Source of the DNA: Axinella damicornis
Lineage: Eukaryota > Porifera > Demospongiae > Axinellida > Axinellidae
NCBI GenBank assembly: GCA_963931865.1
Contig: OZ007506.1
Span: 8,294,934-8,358,933, forward strand
Length of the DNA stretch: 64,000 nt
Reading direction: 5' to 3'
In this document: positions 5,695 through 61,310 of the stretch, in pieces
Position numbering within the stretch: the first letter of the stretch is position 1
Layout: each line of letters starts with the position of its first letter
Notes under the pieces: generated by a model
What the model saw: only the letters and a program-made list of their open reading frames with translations
Databases searched by the model: none
What the model was told of the DNA's origin: nothing
Translations under genes and position numbers: made by a program

Positions 5695-7228
5695 CACTAT
5701 GCGTACGCAAATAAGTGTCGTCTTTCTGTTTTCGGTTGAGGCAATGCACAATGGTGAGAGGGTATGTCTACAATGCTGATATCTGTGCCTCTGTTGTTGG
5801 CAAGAATTTCGGAATAGCTGCCTGGTTGGTGGCATACTCGCCGTCGTTGCTAGTCTCGCGGGGCCAGCCCCGCGAGACTAGATTGTTGCTGCTCAGTGAA
5901 CTGACTTACTTTCATTTGTCGCACTTCCCACGCTGAGTCTCGTTATCGTAGCAGGCTAACGGGTGTAGACGGGTCCACTGGAGTCCGTTCGAAGGCTAGA
6001 AATACCGTTATAAAACCCCACCGCTTGCTCGCAGCTTCCACGTGTTCGATTGCCCATTCAAAATTTGACGTTAAAATTTCGATGGTTAAAATTTTCGTAG
6101 TTTTTATTTCGTATCTCGAGGCTTCATACGAAATATACGAAAATTAGCACCGTACGAAAATTTCCCGCTATACGGTACTAGTGCGTTTATCACTTTAAGT
6201 AACTACACCACAAAATTATTTCCATGTGCTATGGTAGCTTAATTGCTGGCTGTCTCTCTTTCTTTATTACAGCTGGCTTGTACTTCGGTCTCAGTTGAAG
6301 GATCCTAACTATAGTAGCAGCAAGGTTGATGGAGTCGGTGATGGAATTGGTGGTACTGTCTGCAATGCAGCTACAGATTGGTGTGAAGAAGCTGAGGACT
6401 GGGGAAGGTCAGCTATACCTGAGTACAACAGTGCTATGGAGTACCATAGATCACATGCAGACCAGCTGCAGTAGCTATTATACTGTTCATATGACACTAC
6501 AGGAAAGACTGCCTGTTGATGCTTGCGGGCCTGTGTAGTAACTAGCTAACAGCTTAGTCTACACTTCAACTCGATTAAGGTGGCGGGATACCGGAAGGGG
6601 CGTGGTTAACAGTCCAGACTCAACAACTCAACGCCAGCTGCATGCATTAGACTATATAGCCACAAAACCTGGAACATGAATAGAGAACTGCCACACGAAC
6701 TCACACAACACAAAACGATGATGGATCACCTTGCGTGACAACGCTATGCTAGCGATCAAAGTGTGCACAATTTTCTAACCAAACATTGCCTCACCAAGAA
6801 CCCGCGAGTCTAAAACAGCACGATCTCCGAATACTCTTTAGTATACTCTAGTGACAGACCCAGTTCTTTTTTGGCAAATCTCTTTCAGTTTTTTGAACAC
6901 AGCAAACAACTGGAAAAGTATCGTAGTGTTTCACATTCCATGCTACTCTGGACACATAAACTTTTTTCGAGAACGTTTAGCGGCTACATTTTATAACTCA
7001 GTCCCTGTCCTGTCCATTTTTCAGTATTTTAGTGGATAAGCCGGGTGAAGTATATGGCTACTGAATTTTATTTTTGGTTAGAAAAAATGACTGTTAAATA
7101 CACGCATGCGCGCGCGCGCAATCCAAATGATTATTGCCGCAGGGATTTCAGCTGTTGCAGAGGTGAGTGAACTACACTGTCCAGCCCAACAAAGATACTT
7201 GTTAGACATATATTAAAAAAAAGATAAA
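5695..7228. other. Intergenic, no gene recognised
   Basis: Contains a perfect hairpin at about 5850-5883 (CTAGTCTCGCGGGGC and its reverse complement around a 2-nt loop), related in its ends to the short hairpin family, and a (CG)n-rich stretch at 7105-7120. No exon-like open frames with recognisable motifs were seen. Confidence 0.5.
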
Positions 7229-8906
7229 TTGCTGGATCTGTCCTGCAGAAGGATGGGGATCTGTGCTAGGAACAAGAAAAATCTACATGTGAGCAAGGGA
7301 AAATTCATCAATCGACGACGACGACCAAAGAGCCGCACAACAGAAGAGCGAAAGGAGAATGTCAGTCCTGGCAGCAGCACCAGCCCCTTGGAAGGAAGCA
7401 GGATTATCAATCTCGAACAACTTGCATCCTTCGTCACCAACATAGGGTCTCATTCAAAGTCATGTCCCATGGGAAATGTAACTTTGATTGGTGAGACTTA
7501 CCACAATGGTATGGCATCTGTTCTCAGCGCAAAATGTAGCAGCTGTCGAATGGAGATCGCATTTCAACATCACACAAGGTTGAGGGAGTGGGAAGTGGGA
7601 AGCGTTGGGAGAGTAATGTGGCAGCGGTGTGGGGGCAGATGTCTACTGATGGTGGCCATGCACACCTGAAGGAAACCATGTCAGTACTGGGTGTTCCTAC
7701 AATGACAAAGAAGGCCTTTGTAGCAACTGAGTCTGCCATTGACAAATGCTGGTGGCAGTCTCTTGAAGAGTCGATGAGAGAGGCTGCAGAGGAAGAGAAG
7801 AGAATAGCTATAGAGAGAGGGTCCTATCATCAGGGGGTTCCGGCTATTACAGTTATTTTGGATGCAGTTTGGAGCAAGCGCTCACATAAACATTGTTACA
7901 ACGCCAAGTCAGGTGTAGAAATTATTGTGGGAATGGAAACCTAGAAGTTATTGTACGTTGGTGTCAGGGACAAATACTGCAGTGTGTGTGCAAGGGCCGA
8001 CACAAAGGGAGAAGAACCACCACAGCATGAATGCCACAAAAATTGGGATGGGTCATCTTCCTCTATGGAAACAGACATAATTGTGCAAGGTTTCAAGGAG
8101 GCTGAAACAAAGTATGGGCTGCGGTACACGAAGTTTGTTGGAGGTGGGGACAGTTCCGTGTACCCAGCCCTGATAACTGGAGTACGTACCCCAATGGGGT
8201 CACGTTATCAGCAAAATTGAGTGCGTCAACCACGCAATAAAGTGCTACAGAGGGGCACTGGAGAAGCTGGCACAAGAAAACCCTGACTACAGAGGCAAGC
8301 AGACTAACCAGCAACATGAGAAAGAGACTGACTAAGGCAGCACGATGTGCCATCAAAATGAGAGGTGCCATCCCTGACAGGAAGCGTGCAGTGGAACTAC
8401 TTCGTGCAGATCTCCACAATGGCCCCCTTCACTGCTTTGGAGTGCACACTGAATGCAGTACTGACTACTGCCAAGTATCACGGGGTTCTACAACCAGTAC
8501 AAACTCAATCGGCACAAGCAGTACAAGCACAGGCAGTACAAGCACAGGCAGTACAAGCACAGGCAGTACAAGCACAGGCAGTACAAGCACAGGCAGTACA
8601 AGCACAGGCAGTACAAGCACAGGCAGTACAAGCACAGGCAGTACAAGCACAAGTGGTACAAGCGCACATGGAAGTGATGACAGCACAGAAATCTCACCCG
8701 AGGAGTCAGCAGGAGACATTGCGTCACAGGATGCAGAGGAGTGGGAAGATGCTCTTGATGAGGAGAACTTGGAGTCCATGCGTTCCATTGCTCCCACAGC
8801 TCCAGAAACTGTAGATCCAAAGATGATGTGGGATATTCGGCGTACAGTCGGCCGTCTCATTAGTAAAGCTGACCAACTCCTTGGTGAGATAATTATCGAT
8901 AGCTAG
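7229..8906 (+). pseudogene. Mutator-like transposase pseudogene
   Basis: Successive frames resemble the Mutator-like transposase domain common in invertebrate genomes. First comes an N-terminal part (about 7252-7580), then KRWESNVAAVWGQM, VPTMTKKAF, CWWQSLEESM and SYHQGVPAITVILD (7590-7944). Next are YVGVRDKYCSVC, HECHKNWDGSSSSME and FVGGGDSSVYPAL (7945-8190), then CVNHAIKCYRGALEKL, RCAIKMRGA and GPLHCFGVHTECS (8190-8470). The C-terminal acidic tail ends at 8906. Damage seen: frameshifts near 7585, 8190 and 8290 and an in-frame TAG at 7942. A 15-bp array lies in the C-terminal part. Terminal inverted repeats were not located. Confidence 0.85.
8513..8660. repeat. 15-bp minisatellite in the Mutator-like relic
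   Basis: About ten units of ACAAGCACAGGCAGT, coding for a Ser-Thr-Ser-Thr-Gly repeat in the transposase frame. Expansion keeps frame because 15 is a multiple of three. Confidence 0.95.
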
Positions 8907-15328: not shown

Positions 15329-18300
15329 TTAAGGATTGCCCGGGACATCGTACGGTACATCTGGGTCAAAGTCCTGCATGAGTAGGTGGTCCTCAATCTC
15401 ATCAATGAAGGCCTCAAACTCGTCTTGCATGTCGGGATCCATCCCCTGGCTGTCCACGTCTCCTGGGAGAAAGCTGGAAGGAAGTGGATGTCTACGTGTG
15501 AGTAGGTGTACATGCGAAGCAGCAGGTGACAGCCTACTGGGCCTCGTCTCAGAGCCAGTATAGCCTCGTTTGCACGCTGCCCTCCCAGTTCGTGCGGTGA
15601 AGATAAATACAAAATACTCCCCCTCCGTATTTTTCTTCACAGCACACGGGGGGAGCCTAGGAACGAGGCTAGAGTCAGTAATGTCACTCACTTCCAACAC
15701 TAGCCTTGTTCCAAGGCAATTACCGAGTGCCTGGGAACGAGGCTGGAGTCAGTAATGGAAGCTGTCACTCACTTCCAACACTAGCCTTGTTCCAAGGCAA
15801 TTACCGAGTGCCTGGGAACGAGGCTGGAGTCAGTAATGGAAGCTGTCACTCACTTCCAACACTAGCCTTGTTCCAAGGCAATTACCGAGTGCCTGGGAAC
15901 GAGGCTGGAGTCAGTAATGGAAGCTGTCACTCACTTCCAACACTAGCCTTGTTCCAAGGCAATTACCGAGTACCTGGGAACGAGGCTGGAGTCAGTAATG
16001 GAAGCTGTCACTCCCAACACTAGCCTTGTTCCAAGGCAATTACCGAGTGCCTGGGAACGAGGCTATTCCAATACCAGTGAAGATGGGATGTAAAGTCTTC
16101 TTAGATGATACCCGCTACGTGTACGTGCACGACGTAAGCAGTTTGTTGAAGTCGTTAGTGATTATTGTGGTGAAGCTGTAATTCTGGTTGTGTTATTAAG
16201 GTTCTAATAAGTTTACTATTGGTGTTGAACACCATTGCCTGTGTCACTGGTATCGTGTAGGTCTCATGCACAGTGTAGTCACATACTTTAGTACTCACTC
16301 TGGTGTGTCAGTGTCCTCAACGACTAGATCATCTTCATCCACATACTCGTTCCAGTCATCTGTAAAGTGTACCAGTTATAAACATCAACATTCATTCAGT
16401 GGAGGGCAGAGCATCAGTTTTGAACATTCAGTGGAGGGCGGGGTATCAGTTATGAATACTGAATGGAGGGTGGGGCAACCTCAGTTGAGTATTTGTATAC
16501 AGTCTAGTAATCAACATTGAATAGTGGGTGGGGCATCAGTGAAAATCATTCACAACACAACACACACACTTACCAGGATCAGTAACCGGGAGTTGCGCAC
16601 CCATTGGGTGGCTTGGGTTGAATATGAGTTCGTCGAGTGGGGGTTGCTGGTTGGCAGGTGTGAGTGTGCTGGTGGAGGTAGGAGGGGCAGATTTCATACC
16701 CTTTCCCCACTTGACGGCCTGAAGCTGTATCACACGTATAACAAGGTCTTGGCAGTGACTAGTGTGTGTGCATGTGTGTGACAGGCATGTGCGTTGTGGT
16801 GTGTGTCAGCATCAAGCCACCAAAGATCAGAGAGGGTATGAAAATCAGCAAACGGATGCCTGCCTGAGGGCTGCTTTGGCCTATTTGGACCTTGTCAGTA
16901 CAGTTACTCTGACCAGCAGCAGGTACACAATTGTACAGACAGGCAGGCATCCAAGCTTTCATAGGTGCCTAATGCAATTATGGTTTCATTTTAGTCCCGT
17001 TCCCAGGTACGCCTAGCTTTTCATCGCTTGCAGCGTGGGCCTGGGAATGAGGCTATTTCGTTCTGACAGGAGGGCACAAGCCGTTCTGACAGGAGCACAT
17101 CAAGCCGGTGAAACTGGAGAGGGAGGTGTGGCTTCGCATGTACATTGTATAGGCAGCAAATACAAACATAGCAGCTGCATTATATCAGTAGGATTTTATG
17201 ATGAAACAAGAAACATTAATATCATGTGAATCGCCCGAGAGCTAGAGCTAGGGAAACAAAACACATAGAGTTGGAAGCAGTGTGTCGCTTTGAGCAAGAG
17301 TATTCAGAGAAACAGAGACCCACAGTTGGAACAGTCACCCCCCAAGCGGTTTTTGCTCACAAGTGGTTCAGAAGAAGCACAAACGGATGAGAAGCTCATT
17401 GTGTGATGGTTGTTGCAGGATAGGACTGAAGCCATGCATGTGCTGTTCGCTTTGAACATTGACGTCACTTAGTTTCTTTCAAGTCTATGTTCCAAACTGG
17501 TATTTGTCACCAGGGCTGCAGAATTGGTTCCCACTTAAGTACCAGTACTGAGATACCATCTATGATTGCTTCCAGGAAGTTGTATGTTAACCAATTCCAA
17601 CCTCCACCAGAGACGCAAGTGATTTACACGGGCAGTGAATTCCTTTCAAGTCTGCTTCATGTGAGACATGAACAGTAAAGTCTCCCGCATTCCGGGCAGA
17701 GCATACTGCATGAGCGCCCACCTCTGTTACTGTGCATCAACTTGTACGTTTGAATCTGCCCCCTGAGGGGATCCTACAGGTCTTACTAACCTCCCTGGCA
17801 ACTTCAAGGTCACTCCATGTGGCAGCCACAGACCTTGGACTGGCCACCTTATCATTGACGCTCAAAAATGTTGGCCTGAAGCAACCACATAATAAGGTTC
17901 CGTTGTACACATGATTATTGCTGAGCAGGGAAGTGGGGGAAGTAATTACGCATCTTCATTCCTAGATGAGCCTGTGAATGAGTAATCATGTTGCATCTGA
18001 GCTACGTAGAAGAGCTGGTAGCAACCTAAATTCTCACTGAACATTCTCCGGACTTGGGAAATCAATCTCGAAGGCATGCAAGGCTCAGGAATGCAGTAAG
18101 TGCATGTACATCACTCTAATGCAAGTGCTCACATTGTGTGAAAGTCTGTCACAATAATAGTTGCTGAGATGGCACTACAAACAGGGTGTTTGGTTTTTTT
18201 GCTGCTGCTTCATGAATATACTTACAAGGCCAGAATACGTAACCAACAGTATTGTTTAGCGGGAGAGAGCCTGGTAAGTTTTATTGTGCAAGTGACGTCA

Positions 18301-21300
18301 AGGGTAGAAAGACTGGAAATGACCGTGGGCATACTGGGGCTCAGAACAGCAAGAAGAGTGAAGGCACCAGGTATCTAGCTAGCGGGGGTGACTGTCATAC
18401 ACACCAAGTGTTGAACAACATGAGCGTTTTGTTCTGGCAATTTTGCCATTTGTAGACTATGTCATGCTCACGTGATCTCCGTTTTTCTGTACTGCAAGCG
18501 ACAAAAAGCCGGGTCCATGGGGGCCTGGAAACGAGGCTATTGGGCACTAATATAACTTAAAGATGAGCCTTTCCTTCTGATGTGGAGGTACTCATTAGAG
18601 CTTGTTAGTCAGTTGATGACACATTTGCATAAGTCTAAATAGAGCCCACCAAAACATTTCTGAGGGAGTTGGCATTCTGATTTTTTGAGTGCATGTAGGC
18701 CTCAGTAAAGTCTCCAAGTTTGAAGCATAAAGCTTGCACCAAACGTTTTTCGCATAATTATGGTTAGGGGTTAGGTTACCCCCCAACCATATAGCCTCGT
18801 ACCCAGGCCAACACGCAGAACGCGAACGTGGGCCTGGTGACACATGGCAAAATTCCCGTATGTGCTGAAGTCAGCAGTCTTGATTTTGGGTAGGCGAATC
18901 ACGTTTGTCCATTGCCAATTACTGCGTAGTAATTACATTCTTTACCACGTAAAAAGAGTAGCCATTTGATAGAACCGATGTTCTAGCCTTCAAGACTCAT
19001 CTCTGGTCGCTCTTTGGCAAGGATTTTCTACTTAGCCATCACCAACAGCTACATACATGTATACCTGCCGCATGAATTTGAATGTATCCAAGTAAGGAAT
19101 GTAATCGCTTACACAATTATGCTGACTGAGCACATACGGAAATTTTGCCAAGTGTCACCAGGCCCTCTTCCGCGTTCCGTGTGTGGACCTCGGTATGAGA
19201 CTACCAACCATATGTAACATACATGTATAGGAAAAGTACAATTTCTTGGTGCCCATACGGTATTAAAACCGGTGGTCCCGATGCAACACGTAGGTGGCTC
19301 AATGCCATGCTACATGTACACTGGCTAGCCTCGTTCCCAGGCTGCCCACGCGGCCTGGGAACAAGGCTAGTACACTGGCCTGCACATTTCATGGATAATC
19401 AGATTCTGAACACAGTGTTGCAATTACAGGAAGGCTTGTTGTTTGACCTGAAAAGGATTGCGTACAAAACGTACTGATGCCTGAGAGATGTCCGATGAAA
19501 TGTGCAGAGTTCAGTGATCCAGAAATAACGTGACAAGTTTAATCACCAAGGCTACTGTCCGGAGATAAGATAGAATAACGTACAAACCGTCTAAAGATGG
19601 ACGTGGACTGATATGAATATGTACGTAGCACGTGATAAATACAGCAAAACACACACACACACACACTGTACTAACATATGCACCTGCTTAAGCTGTCGTC
19701 GATGGCGAGTTTCTTGAGAGTTTCGACCACCTGTTCCATCTTGCTTGACCCCTTCTTCTCACATTCCTCCAGTAAATTCCCCGTCAACTACACAGACATG
19801 GAGCACAGTGGCAGAGAATGAACAGCTGCAGAATTCAGCCTCTGTATTTACAGTACATGCAACAAGGTTAAGACAGCCCAAGGTGGCACGGTGGCACACA
19901 TTCCAAACAGCAGTCTCGTGCCCAGCCGGAAACCTACGGGATAACCGTCTGGTGACTTTCAGCAACATTCTCGGTCTTCATTTAATCTGCCTGAAACCGG
20001 ACAGAACCGGAAGTCCTACTCGTGAAATAGTATACGTAATTGCATGAATTTTCTACAACTTCTCGCTATTAACAATTTAACATAGAGAAAACTGAATTCT
20101 CTGCGATTTCATTGGCAGTCTGATATTCCTGCCTAAAAGGAGTGACTTTTAAACGAAGACCAAGGTTTCCGCTGAAAGTCGCCAGACCGTCTTTCCTGCA
20201 AGGGGTGGGGTCCGGGCACGAGACTACCAAACAGGAGTGTGGGCAGCCTCATTCCCACCATTAATTTTGATCCCCTGCCGTATTTACAGACTGTAAGTGA
20301 TCAAACACTGTCAGTGGGGATGGCCTGGGAATGAGGTTAGAGGGTGGGCTGGCTTTAGCATTCATCTACATCACTATGAAAGGGAGCACAGGTTTGTGGT
20401 TAGCACTCAAGCATCATAGTTACATGTAGCAATGCCACTCTCCCCAACAGCCATGGTTTGGCAGTTTGCTACTACGTAACTACTTGAGAGTAGTGTCTGC
20501 AGCACACTGACTACACTTGGCCAGATTTTTGTTGGTAGCGAAGAGTCTATTGAGCCTTAAGTACACCTGGTCATGCATGATGAAGCGCTGGTTCTACTGA
20601 AGACAATACTGAGAGGTGAAACTACTGGTTTTCCACTGCTTCAGCACACTCTAACCAGCATGTACACTCAACTGCCTAATACCATCTCACATGAGACCAG
20701 GAAGCTGAGCCAAAGGGGGGCCTCATTTGCAGGTGGCGTACCTCTTTACGAGACTATACATGTACACTGTATATGATACTGTCAACTGCTGTGTGAGGTC
20801 ATACTGCACGGAAAGGGAGCACAGTGGTGGAGAGGATGAACCACCTCCTTGTTCCCGGAACCAGCATGCAGTACGCAAACAAAGCGGGATAGAGAATTGA
20901 AAGTTACTTGCTACTGTGTGAGGCCATGATCCCTGCTGCAAATGGACGGAGAGGGGGGCTGCTATGTGCTATTACGATAGACCCCCCAAAACAGCATGGT
21001 GTATAAACCACCTGGTGGCACACAGAGTGGCCTCCTAACCACCCCTACATGTAGCTGATCGATGGTAAGGCTTGTTGGAATTTGCACATAGGAGGCATTG
21101 AACACACCACCTGGCTTAGTACGGCTTAGTTCCCAGCCCCACAGCCACGAGGGCTGGTATTCCCTCCCAACCTTGAGGATGCTGCACCCGACCATAACCA
21201 GCTTGTCTTCTTTCACTGAGAGTAGCTTCTGCACCAACTCAAATATGGCGACCCCCAGCACGTGGAAAGGGCTGTTGTTCTGTGGGGGAGGAAGAAGAGG

Positions 21301-24300
21301 ACACAAACAGGAATGACTGAATGTCCCTGCTGCCCACACAACACAACAAACTGTTCCCCACATAATAAACTACATGACTGTATATACTGGGTTCTCAAGT
21401 AGTTCCATAGTCTCGGTCCCAGACCCTAACCAACCCCAGCGCGGACCGCATCTGGGGCTGAGACTAGTTGTTCCATTGTGCTACTAGGCCAACATGCAAC
21501 ACAAAACACCTGATACAAACAGACATGCTGTAGGGTACTAAAACAGCTAATACCTCCATATCCTGTTGCTGGAATAATTACTAGGAGAATGCAGGGCATT
21601 GTGGGGCTCGCCTGACGTACTGCATGTCAATATAGTAGTGAAGGCTGGACAAAGCTCATGATCAGCATTGTTGGAAGCGAGTGTGTAACCGAAGGGGTCT
21701 ATTGCTGGGTGGACCATTCAGTGTTTCTGTTTCCGCTAGCAATGTTGTTGTACGCATTAGCCGTGAAAGTTAATTGGCAGAAAGACCATGAAGATGATTT
21801 TTGTCATTGTAGCTAAATTCTCTGCATCTAGGCTATCTAATTGTTTCACTTTGTTGTCTAAGTGATTTGCACTATCACTTTGCATTGTATATCGTGTTTA
21901 TTGATGCCCGGGTGGCGTGGCGCAGCTTATAAGGGAAGCTGGGGGTGGGGCCTGAGCATAAGTTTGCGATGTAGACTATTACATGTAGCCTCGTACCCAG
22001 GCCGTTTCGTGTGTGGGCCTGGGAACGAGGCTAGTAGACTACCGGTACGCGGTAAGTAGGTTTACGTATACCTTGGGCCTCTGCTTGATGACGGTCAGCA
22101 GTATCAAGTTCGTAGCTCATGCGTTCAGTGTGTGGAGTGTCAAGTTTGTTGTACGTAGACTACGACACTACGTTGAGCCAATTGTCGTTCATTCATGTCA
22201 TTGCTGTCTGCACTGAGTTTCAAGTTCGTCGTAGCCTCCTTCCCAGTCCCACGTCCAGCTTTTCGTCGTTTCCGTACTGAGCCCATTCTTTCACGGCGAT
22301 CTAGAGTTTCAAGTTTGTAGTACGTAGTTTGTAGCACCGGCACGCGGGCGGGGCGCAAAATTTCAATTTTCCACTTGGATATACGGTCATACGCTAAGCA
22401 AACAGACATCCATCAGACGACCGACGGACATCCTGAGAACACGACTACGTGGGGCTCGCTCAGGCTCGCCCCAATTAAACATTGCTTTATTGCCGAGTGG
22501 GAAGTCGAATCTGAACTAGCATAATGAATGCAATAAGGACGTAATTTGGTACTCACTACGCAAGTGTGTGGTGGGCACTCACTACATTACTAGTTTGACT
22601 GGCAAGGCTGGATTCACTCACAAGTCTCACTCTTGCGAAAGCCTCGGCATAGAAGAAGGCAAAGTTGATGAAGGCTTCTTTCTCTTCTGTTGTCTTAGTG
22701 ACTGGTTCTTTCCGCTTCGAGAACCACACTTGTAGTCTGAGAGGTGGGTGTGACGGTGAGTGGAGAGGAGGGAGACCGGGGGAGGGGAGGAGTGTGAGGA
22801 GGGAGACAGGGGGAGGGGGAGAGTGTGAGGAGGGAGACAGGGGGAGGGGGAGAGTGTGAGGAGGGAGACAGGGGGAGGGGGAGAGTGTGAGGAGGGAGAC
22901 AGGGGGAGGGGGAGAGTGTGAGGAGGGAGACAGGGGGAGGGGGAGAGTGTGAGGAGGGAAACAGGCATGGGGAGTGTGGAGGGAAATAGGGGATGGGGAG
23001 TATGGAGGGAAAAAAAGGGGAGGGGGAGAGAATGAGGAGGTAGACAGGGGAGGGGGGAGTATGAGGAGGGACACAGGGGGAGAGGTGAGTGTGAGGAGGG
23101 AGACAGGAGGAGGGGGAGAGTGTGAGGAGGGACACAGGGGGAGGGGTGAGTGTGAGGAGGGAGACAGGGGAGGGGGAAAGTGTGGAGGGAAACGAGGGGA
23201 GAATGTGAGGAGGGAGACAGAGTGAGGAGGGACACAGGGGGAGGGGTGAGTGTGAGGAGGGACACAGGGGGAGGGGGAGAGTGTGAGGAGGAAGGCAGAA
23301 GGTGTGGCAAGACGAGGAGAGAGGATGAGGAGGAGGAGAGTGTGAGAAGGGAGAGGTGAGCAGGGGGGAGGGAGAGGAAGAGGATGCCAGGAAGGAGAAG
23401 AGAGGTAAGCGGGAAGGAGAGGGGAGAGGGTGAGGAGGGGGAAGAGAAGGATATGGGATATGTGGAGACACAGCTTAGGTCTGGAAGCTTCCACTGCTAG
23501 TGAGAGTAACAGGGCAGGAAAGGAAGCTTGACTAGCCAACCTTGCCATGAGTATCTTGTTGAAGTCGGCAATTGGTTTCATCTCACACATGACCTGGCAC
23601 AGCCTACAAGCAGTGTAGCGCAGTCCTGGTTCACCTATCCCCTGTGGATTGAAGAGTCTACTTGTAAACCCCACACTATTGAGACAGGCATGCCATGCTC
23701 TGCTAGGAACAGGAAAAGGCTGTCACTTACCCAATGAACAATCATCTCAGCAAGGTTTTGCAAAGTCTCCTGGCTTGGTGGTAACCGCTGGAGGGACTCC
23801 TCAATCTTAATGACGTGCATCTCAAATGACCCCGGATATAACGTGCCTTTGATGAGTATTTCTGCCACCAACTTCAGCAGTGGTGAGGTCCTGTCTCCGT
23901 CCTCAGCTACGATTCTCTCAAATCCATCCACAATGTCTTGGGGTTTCAAGACGGGGTCCTCCACTTCATTGTACTTCAGCTGTAACAGATCAAGATCCAA
24001 GTCATCCACTTTTCCTGGGAGACTAGGATCACCGTTTTGCATCGAAGGAGGTAGACCGATTTTAGGCACAAATTCGGGGGCTGCTATGTTTAGCGTTGTG
24101 ATTTTTGGCACAAATTCTTCTGAGTTGGGGTTGAGTGAGGATGATGAAGAGGCGTTCTGGGTTTGCGGTGTCTGGATAGAAGAAGGGGTGTTTTTTGTCA
24201 CGATCAGGGAGGCACTGGGGAGGCTTGGGGTTGTAGACGGAGTAGGGTTGAATTGTGATGGTTGCAACGCTGATGGGACAGGGGAGAAGGGCTGTGCGGT

Positions 24301-25283: not shown

Positions 25284-61310
<36,027 letters not shown>

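What the first reader, a model, noticed from the sequence alone, without database searches (positions are those of the whole stretch)
19317..19378. Family of 40-70-bp hairpin transposons with 8-bp target-site duplications
Tiny inverted repeats with ends like CTAGCCTCGTTCCCAGGC occur at more than 20 places, mostly in introns. Exact 8-bp flanking duplications are seen for 19325-19370 (TACACTGG), 38296-38353 (GGTCTCCC), 45072-45140 (GCTTCATG), 45261-45305 (CAGTTGTA), 49799-49843 (AGAGTTAC) and the 413-bp member at 18791-19203 (CCAACCAT); others match at seven of eight. Elements of about 40 bp are almost nothing but the two ends, far shorter than usual MITEs. They must be moved by a transposase that makes 8-bp duplications, as hAT, P or Merlin types do. 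The source element was not seen.
Basis: partly seen in the sequence, partly recalled or inferred. Interest (0 to 1): 0.88.

Follow-up and report, generated by a model that had tools for sequence, protein, structure and literature searches.

The report
Tiny hairpin transposons, nine-base target duplications
An animal genome, probably a sponge's, carries a very large family of parasitic DNA pieces, some only 35 to 48 bases long and made of little more than their two ends, many of them still flanked by a nine-base copy of the target site; the enzyme that moved them was not found.

Summary
The hairpin elements are real, and they are non-autonomous DNA transposons (MITEs). Among 92 end pairs chosen by structure alone, flanks match exactly over 9 bp in 36, over 8 bp in 1 and over 10 bp in 4. 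The end is TAGCCTCGTTCCCAGGC, with 21,007 exact copies in the 226-Mb genome and 0 for the reversed control. It closes 605-bp, about 400-bp and about 95-bp families and hairpins of 35-60 bp. There are 574 exact-tipped hairpins of 34-48 bp. One 46-48-bp subfamily, 13 loci fetched, sits at nine distinct target sites; at all nine a copy has its own 9-bp duplication matching at 8 or 9 of 9. One of two 35-bp copies fetched has a perfect duplication. A member with a perfect 9-bp duplication also lies on an animal-like contig binned with a sponge symbiont. Nine bases fit a MULE-type transposase rather than hAT or P, and no Merlin domain was found. MULEs are present, but none was shown to carry these ends; few were read. 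Intron preference was not tested.

The parts
19326..19369 (.). 44-bp hairpin element (the named one): two 17-bp ends and a 10-bp spacer; one extra G at 19370 before the right duplication
19317..19325 (.). left 9-bp target-site duplication TACACTGGC
19371..19379 (.). right 9-bp target-site duplication TACACTGGC
18792..19203 (.). 412-bp member of the homogeneous ~400-bp family; 9-bp duplication CCAACCATA on both sides
   Evidence: L040-L068 are 92-95% identical to it over the first 110-112 bp
38298..38353 (.). 56-bp element; 9-bp duplication GGTCTCCCA
45073..45140 (.). 68-bp element; 9-bp duplication GCTTCATGC
45264..45305 (.). 42-bp TAGTCC-type element (2 extra bases on the left); 9-bp duplication CAGTTGTAC
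49800..49842 (.). 43-bp element (1 extra base on the right); 9-bp duplication AGAGTTACC
26107..26145 (.). 39-bp element; flanks match at 8 of 9
56621..56659 (.). 39-bp element; flanks match at 8 of 9
44335..44439 (.). 105-bp element; flanks match at 8 of 9
21408..21466 (.). 59-bp TAGTCTCG-type element; flanks match at 8 of 9
20244..20339 (.). 96-bp element; flanks match at 8 of 9
19911..20226 (.). 316-bp diverged element with CAGTCTCG left end; flanks match at 8 of 9 with one base of shift
15561..15671 (.). 111-bp element; flanks match at 8 of 9; next to a tandem array of related 45-bp hairpins
15682..16064 (.). tandem array, period 81, units holding a 45-bp hairpin of the family
39248..39911 (.). 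minisatellite, period 36, units holding one family end (CTAGCCTCGTTCTCAGGC)

Best explanation
These are non-autonomous cut-and-paste DNA transposons (MITEs) of one system. Its signal is a 17-bp end, TAGCCTCGTTCCCAGGC, and it duplicates 9 bp of target. SHOWN: the 9-bp duplication; the shared end on elements from 605 bp down to 35 bp; the presence of one 46-48-bp form at nine distinct sites, each with its own duplication. INFERRED: the long families carry long inverted ends whose outer part folds back on itself. Internal deletion collapses them first to ~95-bp palindromes and then to 35-60-bp hairpins that are hardly more than two ends. Those hairpins still serve as substrate, so a 46-bp unit could spread on its own. 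The transposase acts in trans and is most likely of MULE (Mutator/Rehavkus) type, about 65% likely. Some copies were later multiplied in tandem, in one case apparently between the duplicated target sites, which gives minisatellites.
For: Duplication length: 36 of 92 structure-selected pairs exact over 9 bp, 1 over 8, 4 over 10, 0 over 6, 7, 11 or 12; partner-swapped control 0.15% at 8 or more of 9 against 49 of 92. Genome: 10,089 + 10,918 exact ends, reversed control 0 + 0; 574 exact-tipped hairpins with a 0-14-bp spacer, control 0. Short form as the unit: 35 of 35 matches to the CCGAGACGGCGAG spacer run into the opposite end (6 of them with one changed base), none into a longer element; of 13 such loci fetched, 9 distinct target sites, and at 9 of 9 at least one copy has an 8-9 of 9 duplication. 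Check on 20 exact hairpins: 15 of 20 match at 8 or more of 9 in the best of 9 registers, one of the 15 meaningless (AC repeat); one 35-bp element is at 9 of 9. Deletion series: three ~95-bp palindromes match the outer 47 bp of a 397-bp element at 37-45 of 47. Another animal: a 147-bp member with duplication GTATGCACC on L119. MULE: 51 PF10551 and 85 PF20700 matches; 9-bp repeats at the ends of L075/L081 (CTAGTATTG, by eye) and L077 (ACCTTTTGT).
Against: No autonomous element with these ends was found. Only 14 of 51 PF10551 places (and the flanks of 2 more) and 3 of 85 PF20700 matches were read at least in part, so the search is thin. The MULEs with inverted repeats around the gene (L075, L076, L077, L078, L087) have other ends. 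So MULE origin rests on duplication length and on presence of the superfamily. The L075 ends lie 114 bp outside the stretch it shares with L080, so it is not certain that they are its own. 34 of 92 pairs do not reach 8 of 9 in any register. In the 20-hairpin test 5 of 20 fail and two pairs of loci share flanks; the other 35-bp element (L104) has no duplication. In the cross-locus control 4 of 752 reach 8 of 9, loci with shared flanks not removed except two pairs. Four of the 13 subfamily loci share flanks and one of them (L110) matches at only 6 of 9: that copy travels in a larger repeat, so copy number overstates insertions. In-place deletion of longer copies could have made some or all of the shortest ones.
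Confidence: 0.74

Rival explanations
1. The shortest hairpins (35-60 bp) never moved as such. Longer MITEs inserted first, and hairpin-driven deletion at each site trimmed them in place to two ends, keeping the 9-bp duplication.
For: Palindromes are prone to central deletion (established knowledge). Spacers among 34-48-bp hairpins vary in length around the same core, e.g. CCGAGACG to CCGAGACGGCGAG. The long families offer the needed arms.
Against: Nine distinct sites carry the same 46-48-bp unit with an asymmetric spacer, and 35 of 35 genome matches to that spacer are short forms with no longer relative seen. Recurrent trimming should give varied junctions and leave some longer copies. The pattern allowed only 0-4 bp before CCTGG and no G at its last place, so a progenitor with a larger loop would be missed.
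Confidence: 0.2
2. The transposase is of hAT or P type (8-bp duplication).
For: 150 scored matches to the hAT dimerisation domain show that hATs abound in this genome. P-element domains were not searched for.
Against: Flanks match exactly over 8 bp in 1 of 92 pairs and over 9 bp in 36 of 92.
Confidence: 0.06
3. The transposase is of Merlin type (8-9-bp duplication).
For: Merlin elements are reported with 8- or 9-bp duplications (PMC8101967, passages read).
Against: No PF12762 match in the assembly at E up to 0.001. Merlin ends are described as starting with GG (same passages); these start with TAG.
Confidence: 0.07
4. The hairpins are not transposons but a structural or regulatory repeat spread by tandem expansion and segmental duplication.
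For: Tandem arrays of the end occur, and some copies share flanks.
Against: A sharp 9-bp duplication peak, with 5 of 92 exact matches at all other lengths tested together, and dispersed 605-bp and ~400-bp families, the latter with different duplications at different sites.
Confidence: 0.03

Closest known systems
Made1 (MITE of Hsmar1, human)
   Same: Nearly perfect palindrome made of two ends and a tiny spacer (80 bp: two 37-bp ends and 6 bp; PMC1784062, passages read).
   Different: Made1 is mariner-type with TA duplications (recalled). The units here are 35-60 bp with 17-bp ends and 9-bp duplications.
Mutator-like elements (MULEs) and their MITEs
   Same: 9-bp duplications and, in the 605-bp family, 84-bp inverted ends. 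MULE duplications are 8-11 bp and their ends 14-500 bp (PMC6446971, passages read).
   Different: No MULE transposase has been shown between these ends. The ends TAGCCTCG differ from those of the five MULEs with readable inverted repeats here.
Rehavkus
   Same: 9-bp duplications; ends 26-400 bp; PHD finger and a minisatellite near the 3' end (PMC6446971, passages read). A PHD-like MULE protein with a short repeat just after its stop codon is in this genome (L071).
   Different: The ends of L071 could not be read. The PHD assignment is by eye; Pfam did not call it. Reported hosts are arthropods and annelids (same passages).
AhMITE1 (peanut) and Tm1 (root-knot nematode, Mutator/Foldback)
   Same: Search listing and start of abstract only: an active MITE, and a Mutator/Foldback family, in papers that mention a 9-bp TSD.
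   Different: Not read further; much longer elements as far as recalled.

Membership tests
MITE (non-autonomous cut-and-paste DNA transposon) | terminal inverted repeats | tested here: met
MITE (non-autonomous cut-and-paste DNA transposon) | target-site duplication of fixed length, well above chance | tested here: met
   9 bp
MITE (non-autonomous cut-and-paste DNA transposon) | no coding capacity, high copy number, homogeneous subfamilies | tested here: met
   copy number and homogeneity (the 40 scored of 1275, 806 and 594 candidates); coding capacity looked at in 6 elements, longest frame 102 aa
MITE (non-autonomous cut-and-paste DNA transposon) | ends shared with an autonomous partner | tested here: inconclusive
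   none found; 14 of 51 PF10551 places, flanks of 2 more, and 3 of 85 PF20700 matches read at least in part
MULE / Mutator superfamily | 8-11-bp (often 9-bp) duplication | tested here: met
   range from PMC6446971
MULE / Mutator superfamily | MULE DDE transposase encoded by an element with these ends | tested here: inconclusive
   five MULEs with readable inverted repeats have other ends; ends of the rest not read
Rehavkus | PHD-finger transposase and 3' minisatellite in an element with these ends | tested here: inconclusive
hAT | 8-bp duplication | tested here: not met
   8 bp exact in 1 of 92 against 9 bp in 36 of 92
P element | 8-bp duplication | tested here: not met
   same test
Merlin | IS1595-type DDE transposase in the genome | tested here: not met
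   PF12762, 0 hits
Merlin | ends beginning GG | tested here: not met
   the bases next to the duplication are TAG; GG from PMC8101967

The most novel reading that the evidence does not exclude
A 46-bp hairpin, and perhaps a 35-bp one, is itself a complete, mobile substrate. Two 17-bp ends back to back, on DNA too short and stiff to be looped in the usual way, are enough for a MULE-like transposase. That would make these the shortest self-contained transposons that I know of. They may move by an unusual route, for instance as a folded single strand or from a tandem pair rather than by ordinary looping of one double-stranded copy.
Probability: 0.35. Interest if true: 0.86.

Novelty: new variant of a known kind. 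Interest (0 to 1): 0.62.

Why it matters
If the 46-bp form really jumps, it sets a new lower bound on what a eukaryotic transposase can move and makes the minimal substrate directly testable. It would also show how a genome can collect on the order of tens of thousands of insertions (an extrapolation from one window) that ordinary repeat annotation, which tends to ignore units under about 50-80 bp (recalled), would miss. The element also seeds tandem repeats, one of them apparently by duplication across its own 9-bp repeats (L032).

Tried and rejected
Autonomous source. Scanned the MULE stretches read (L069-L080, L082-L089) for TAGCCTCG ends flanking the gene. L074 has an exact end 5' of its gene and an end with 3 mismatches 3' of it, but the flanks do not match; two further copies share sequence past the left one and stop before the right one, so those ends are not its termini. 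L075/L081 and L080 share 6.5 kb at 100% without these ends; the 75-bp inverted repeats around the L075 gene are of another kind. L088 carries the family end apparently only as a later, truncated insertion. L034 has an exact end about 1 kb from a PF20700 domain, but no paired end in the stretch held.

Long members. End pairs 400 bp to 20 kb apart in the window (639 pairs) with 8 or more of 9 flank bases: the 412-bp element and one pair inside the 81-bp tandem array. Pairs over 420 bp in every locus then held (1215 pairs): the 605-bp element and the same array pair. L010 and L025 looked like long elements and proved to be a truncated and a ~600-bp MITE.

Tandem end arrays as the ends of a Rehavkus-like element. 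Among the 69 matches listed no inverted pair of arrays was seen, so this was dropped; the list is a lower bound.

De novo scan of the window without the known end (exact 9-bp repeats flanking an inverted repeat): 15 hits, of which 3 members of the family, 10 from its tandem array and 2 unrelated; the reversed control gave 373, presumably mostly simple repeats. That scan is useless as a statistic and is not relied on.

Literature. 0 papers hold the end sequence. No paper describing this family was found (9 of 10 searches, open-licence PMC text only). PMC12465263 (a sponge genome) was searched for transposon words only and had none in use.

Species. Not given. An animal by its TGF-beta gene. Sponge is an inference from L119.

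Full report
WHAT WAS CHECKED. Aligned on the end TAGCCTCGTTCCCAGGC, each of the six repeats extends to nine bases. One search picks pairs by their flanks, so for a fair test I paired neighbouring inward-facing ends by structure alone (at most 3 mismatches in each end, 30-700 bp apart) in 79 stretches totalling 337 kb. Left out were L004-L008, L038 and L039, which overlap others, and the 501-bp pieces L082-L085. That gave 92 pairs. In one fixed register the flanks are identical over 9 bp in 36 of 92, over 8 bp in 1 of 92, over 10 bp in 4 of 92, and over 6, 7, 11 or 12 bp in none; 49 of 92 match at 8 or 9 of 9. Flanks taken from two different elements do so in 0.15% of about 20,000 draws. Allowing shifts of up to 2 bases on each side (best of 25 registers) raises the count to 58 of 92, against 0.5% for the control; 34 of 92 still fail. 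The sample is biased in length, because 29 stretches were fetched for the ~400-bp family. Five pairs come from one tandem array in the window, and L075 and L080 share one identical stretch, so a pair inside it could count twice.

HOW COMMON. The exact 17-mer occurs 10,089 + 10,918 times in the 226-Mb assembly and its reversed control not at all. The window has 8 exact ends against a genome mean of 5.9 per 64 kb, so it is slightly rich. It holds 16 pairs with 8-9 of 9 duplications at up to 6 mismatches per end; these were picked by flanks in the best register, so some may be chance, and 29799-30041 lies in a minisatellite and is doubtful. Scaling that count gives some 42,000-57,000 elements in the genome (my arithmetic): an upper-side extrapolation from one window. 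A sister type with ends TAGTCTCGNNCCCAGAC has 6,451 exact copies, control 0. Some members of it show 8-9 of 9 duplications (window 21408, L002 779), others do not (L033 1413, 6 of 9); in L075 one at 1348 has its right duplication split by a later MULE insertion (read by eye).

ANATOMY. Over 116 ends of 58 elements, positions 1-17 are 87-100% conserved except position 10 (T 54%), and conservation falls from position 18 (84%) onward. The level within the 17 bp is partly by construction, since ends were chosen with at most 3 mismatches, and many belong to the ~400-bp family. The same end closes several families: one of 605 bp with 84-bp inverted ends, of which the 40 scored of 594 candidates are 89-100% identical to the query; one of about 400 bp, with 1,275 candidate places, the 40 scored being 91-100% identical over the 112-bp end; one like L010, the 40 scored of 806 candidates at 95-100% over about 135 bp; palindromes of 92-95 bp; and hairpins of 35-70 bp. 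In the long families the outer end is followed by a fold-back, an inner GGCCTGG arm pairing with the outer CCCAGGCC (seen by eye). Three ~95-bp palindromes match the outer 47 bp of a 397-bp element at 37-45 of 47, and a 55-bp hairpin matches the outer 27 bp of a 369-bp element at 25 of 27. This is what repeated internal deletion of longer MITEs would give.

THE SHORT FORM. The genome holds 574 exact-tipped hairpins with a spacer of 0-14 bp, control 0. I fetched 20 of the 50 places listed there, chosen for shared spacers and for shortness, with 20-bp flanks. 15 of 20 match at 8 or 9 of 9 in the best of 9 registers and 7 of 20 at 9 of 9. L097, counted in both, lies in an AC repeat and means nothing. 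L091 and L092, and L099 and L100, share flanks, so they are not independent. A 35-bp element (L105), two 17-bp ends and one base, has a perfect 9-bp duplication; the other 35-bp one (L104) has none. As a control, flanks of different loci match at 8 of 9 in 4 of 752 comparisons, loci with shared flanks being left in except those two pairs. The spacer CCGAGACGGCGAG was then searched with 10 bases of what follows: 35 of 35 matches run into the opposite end, six of them with one changed base, and none into a longer element. The pattern would miss a progenitor with a larger loop or a G at its last place. At nine of nine a copy has its own duplication at 8 or 9 of 9. Five sites hold the 46-bp unit, one the 47-bp and three the 48-bp. 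Four of the 13 loci share flanks, one of them (L110) only on one side and with 6 of 9, so that copy travels in a larger repeat. I take this as good, not final, evidence that the 46-48-bp unit itself was inserted.

WHO MOVES THEM. Nine bases exclude the usual hAT and P products. Merlin makes 8 or 9 (PMC8101967, passages), but PF12762 finds nothing in the assembly. MULE transposases are there: 51 matches for PF10551 and 85 for PF20700, several of these being parts of one copy. I read 14 of the 51 PF10551 places at least in part and the flanks of 2 more, and 3 of the 85 PF20700 matches (L088, L089 and the window). Five genes have inverted repeats around them. Two of these show 9-bp direct repeats at their ends: L075/L081, CTAGTATTG (by eye), and L077, ACCTTTTGT, found as the longest exact repeat near the ends. 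For L076, L078 and L087 no adjoining 9-bp repeat was established. None of the five has TAGCCTCG ends. The L075 repeats lie 114 bp outside the stretch shared with L080, so they may not be its own ends. MULE type is therefore an inference from duplication length and presence, at about 65%. hAT domains abound too (150 scored matches).

ELSEWHERE. A scan of one genome per prokaryote species found the exact end in 46 stretches; chance alone gives about 30 in 257 Gb (my arithmetic). One, L119, is a contig binned with a Cycloclasticus symbiont of a Poecilosclerida sponge. One of four frames tried encodes an immunoglobulin-type domain over the cut-off, and the contig holds a 147-bp element with a perfect 9-bp duplication, GTATGCACC. 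I read it as host sponge DNA, so the family is probably not private to the window's species. 26 of the 46 stretches are cyanobacterial. In most of these the 17-mer sits in a different hairpin repeat whose other arm does not end like ours; one (L147, Calothrix) does have a second arm like our end with 4 mismatches, but its flanks do not match (read by eye). I treat the likeness as unproven. Three scans of viral contigs gave one match, looked at only in its flanks.

VERDICT. A real MITE family with a 9-bp duplication and an unknown, probably MULE-type source. It is a new variant of a known kind because of the extreme shortness of dispersed units. The closest yardstick read is Made1, 80 bp (PMC1784062, passages). 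Whether 46 bp or less can be transposed directly is the open and testable point.

Noticed in passing
window 7217-8172: Remnant of a PF20700 Mutator-like transposase gene (a stop inside the match), about 96% identical to L088 over 1.8 kb; no TAGCCTCG end with 5 or fewer mismatches in the first 12 kb of the window.
   Followed up: partly
L074 1187-5314; C4:10089250, C5:9766350: Three near-identical copies of a 967-aa MULE-domain gene all end in a run of A followed by CGCCCGG, unlike an ordinary MULE end.
   Followed up: no
L075 1587 to end of L075 and on into L081; L080 1503-8001: A 1336-aa MULE-domain gene lies in a stretch 100% identical at two places (at least 6.5 kb), which suggests very recent movement.
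   Followed up: partly
L071 577-3282: MULE protein with a C-terminal PHD-like finger (by eye; not called by Pfam) and a short repeat right after the stop codon, as described for Rehavkus.
   Followed up: partly
L003 and C4:1252959-1253696; L001; L002: Arrays of the 18-bp end in tandem, in one orientation per array, up to dozens of units.
   Followed up: partly
L032 1492-1650: Two 66-bp elements in tandem separated and flanked by the same 9-mer (gacaagact, gacaagacc, gacaagact), as if duplicated across the target-site repeats.
   Followed up: partly
L124-L129, L131, L133-L135, L137, L141, L143, L145-L148, L151-L154, L156-L158, L161, L162: Cyanobacteria (Microseira wollei 11 stretches, Hormoscilla 7, eight others) carry the exact 17-mer, mostly inside a different hairpin repeat; L147 also has a second arm resembling our end. 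Relation to the animal family unproven.
   Followed up: partly
L119: A public symbiont MAG (Cycloclasticus, Poecilosclerida sponge) includes a contig that looks like sponge host DNA.
   Followed up: yes
L088 267-852: Insertion relative to the window copy with ends AGGGTAG/CTACCCT, apparently another transposon.
   Followed up: no
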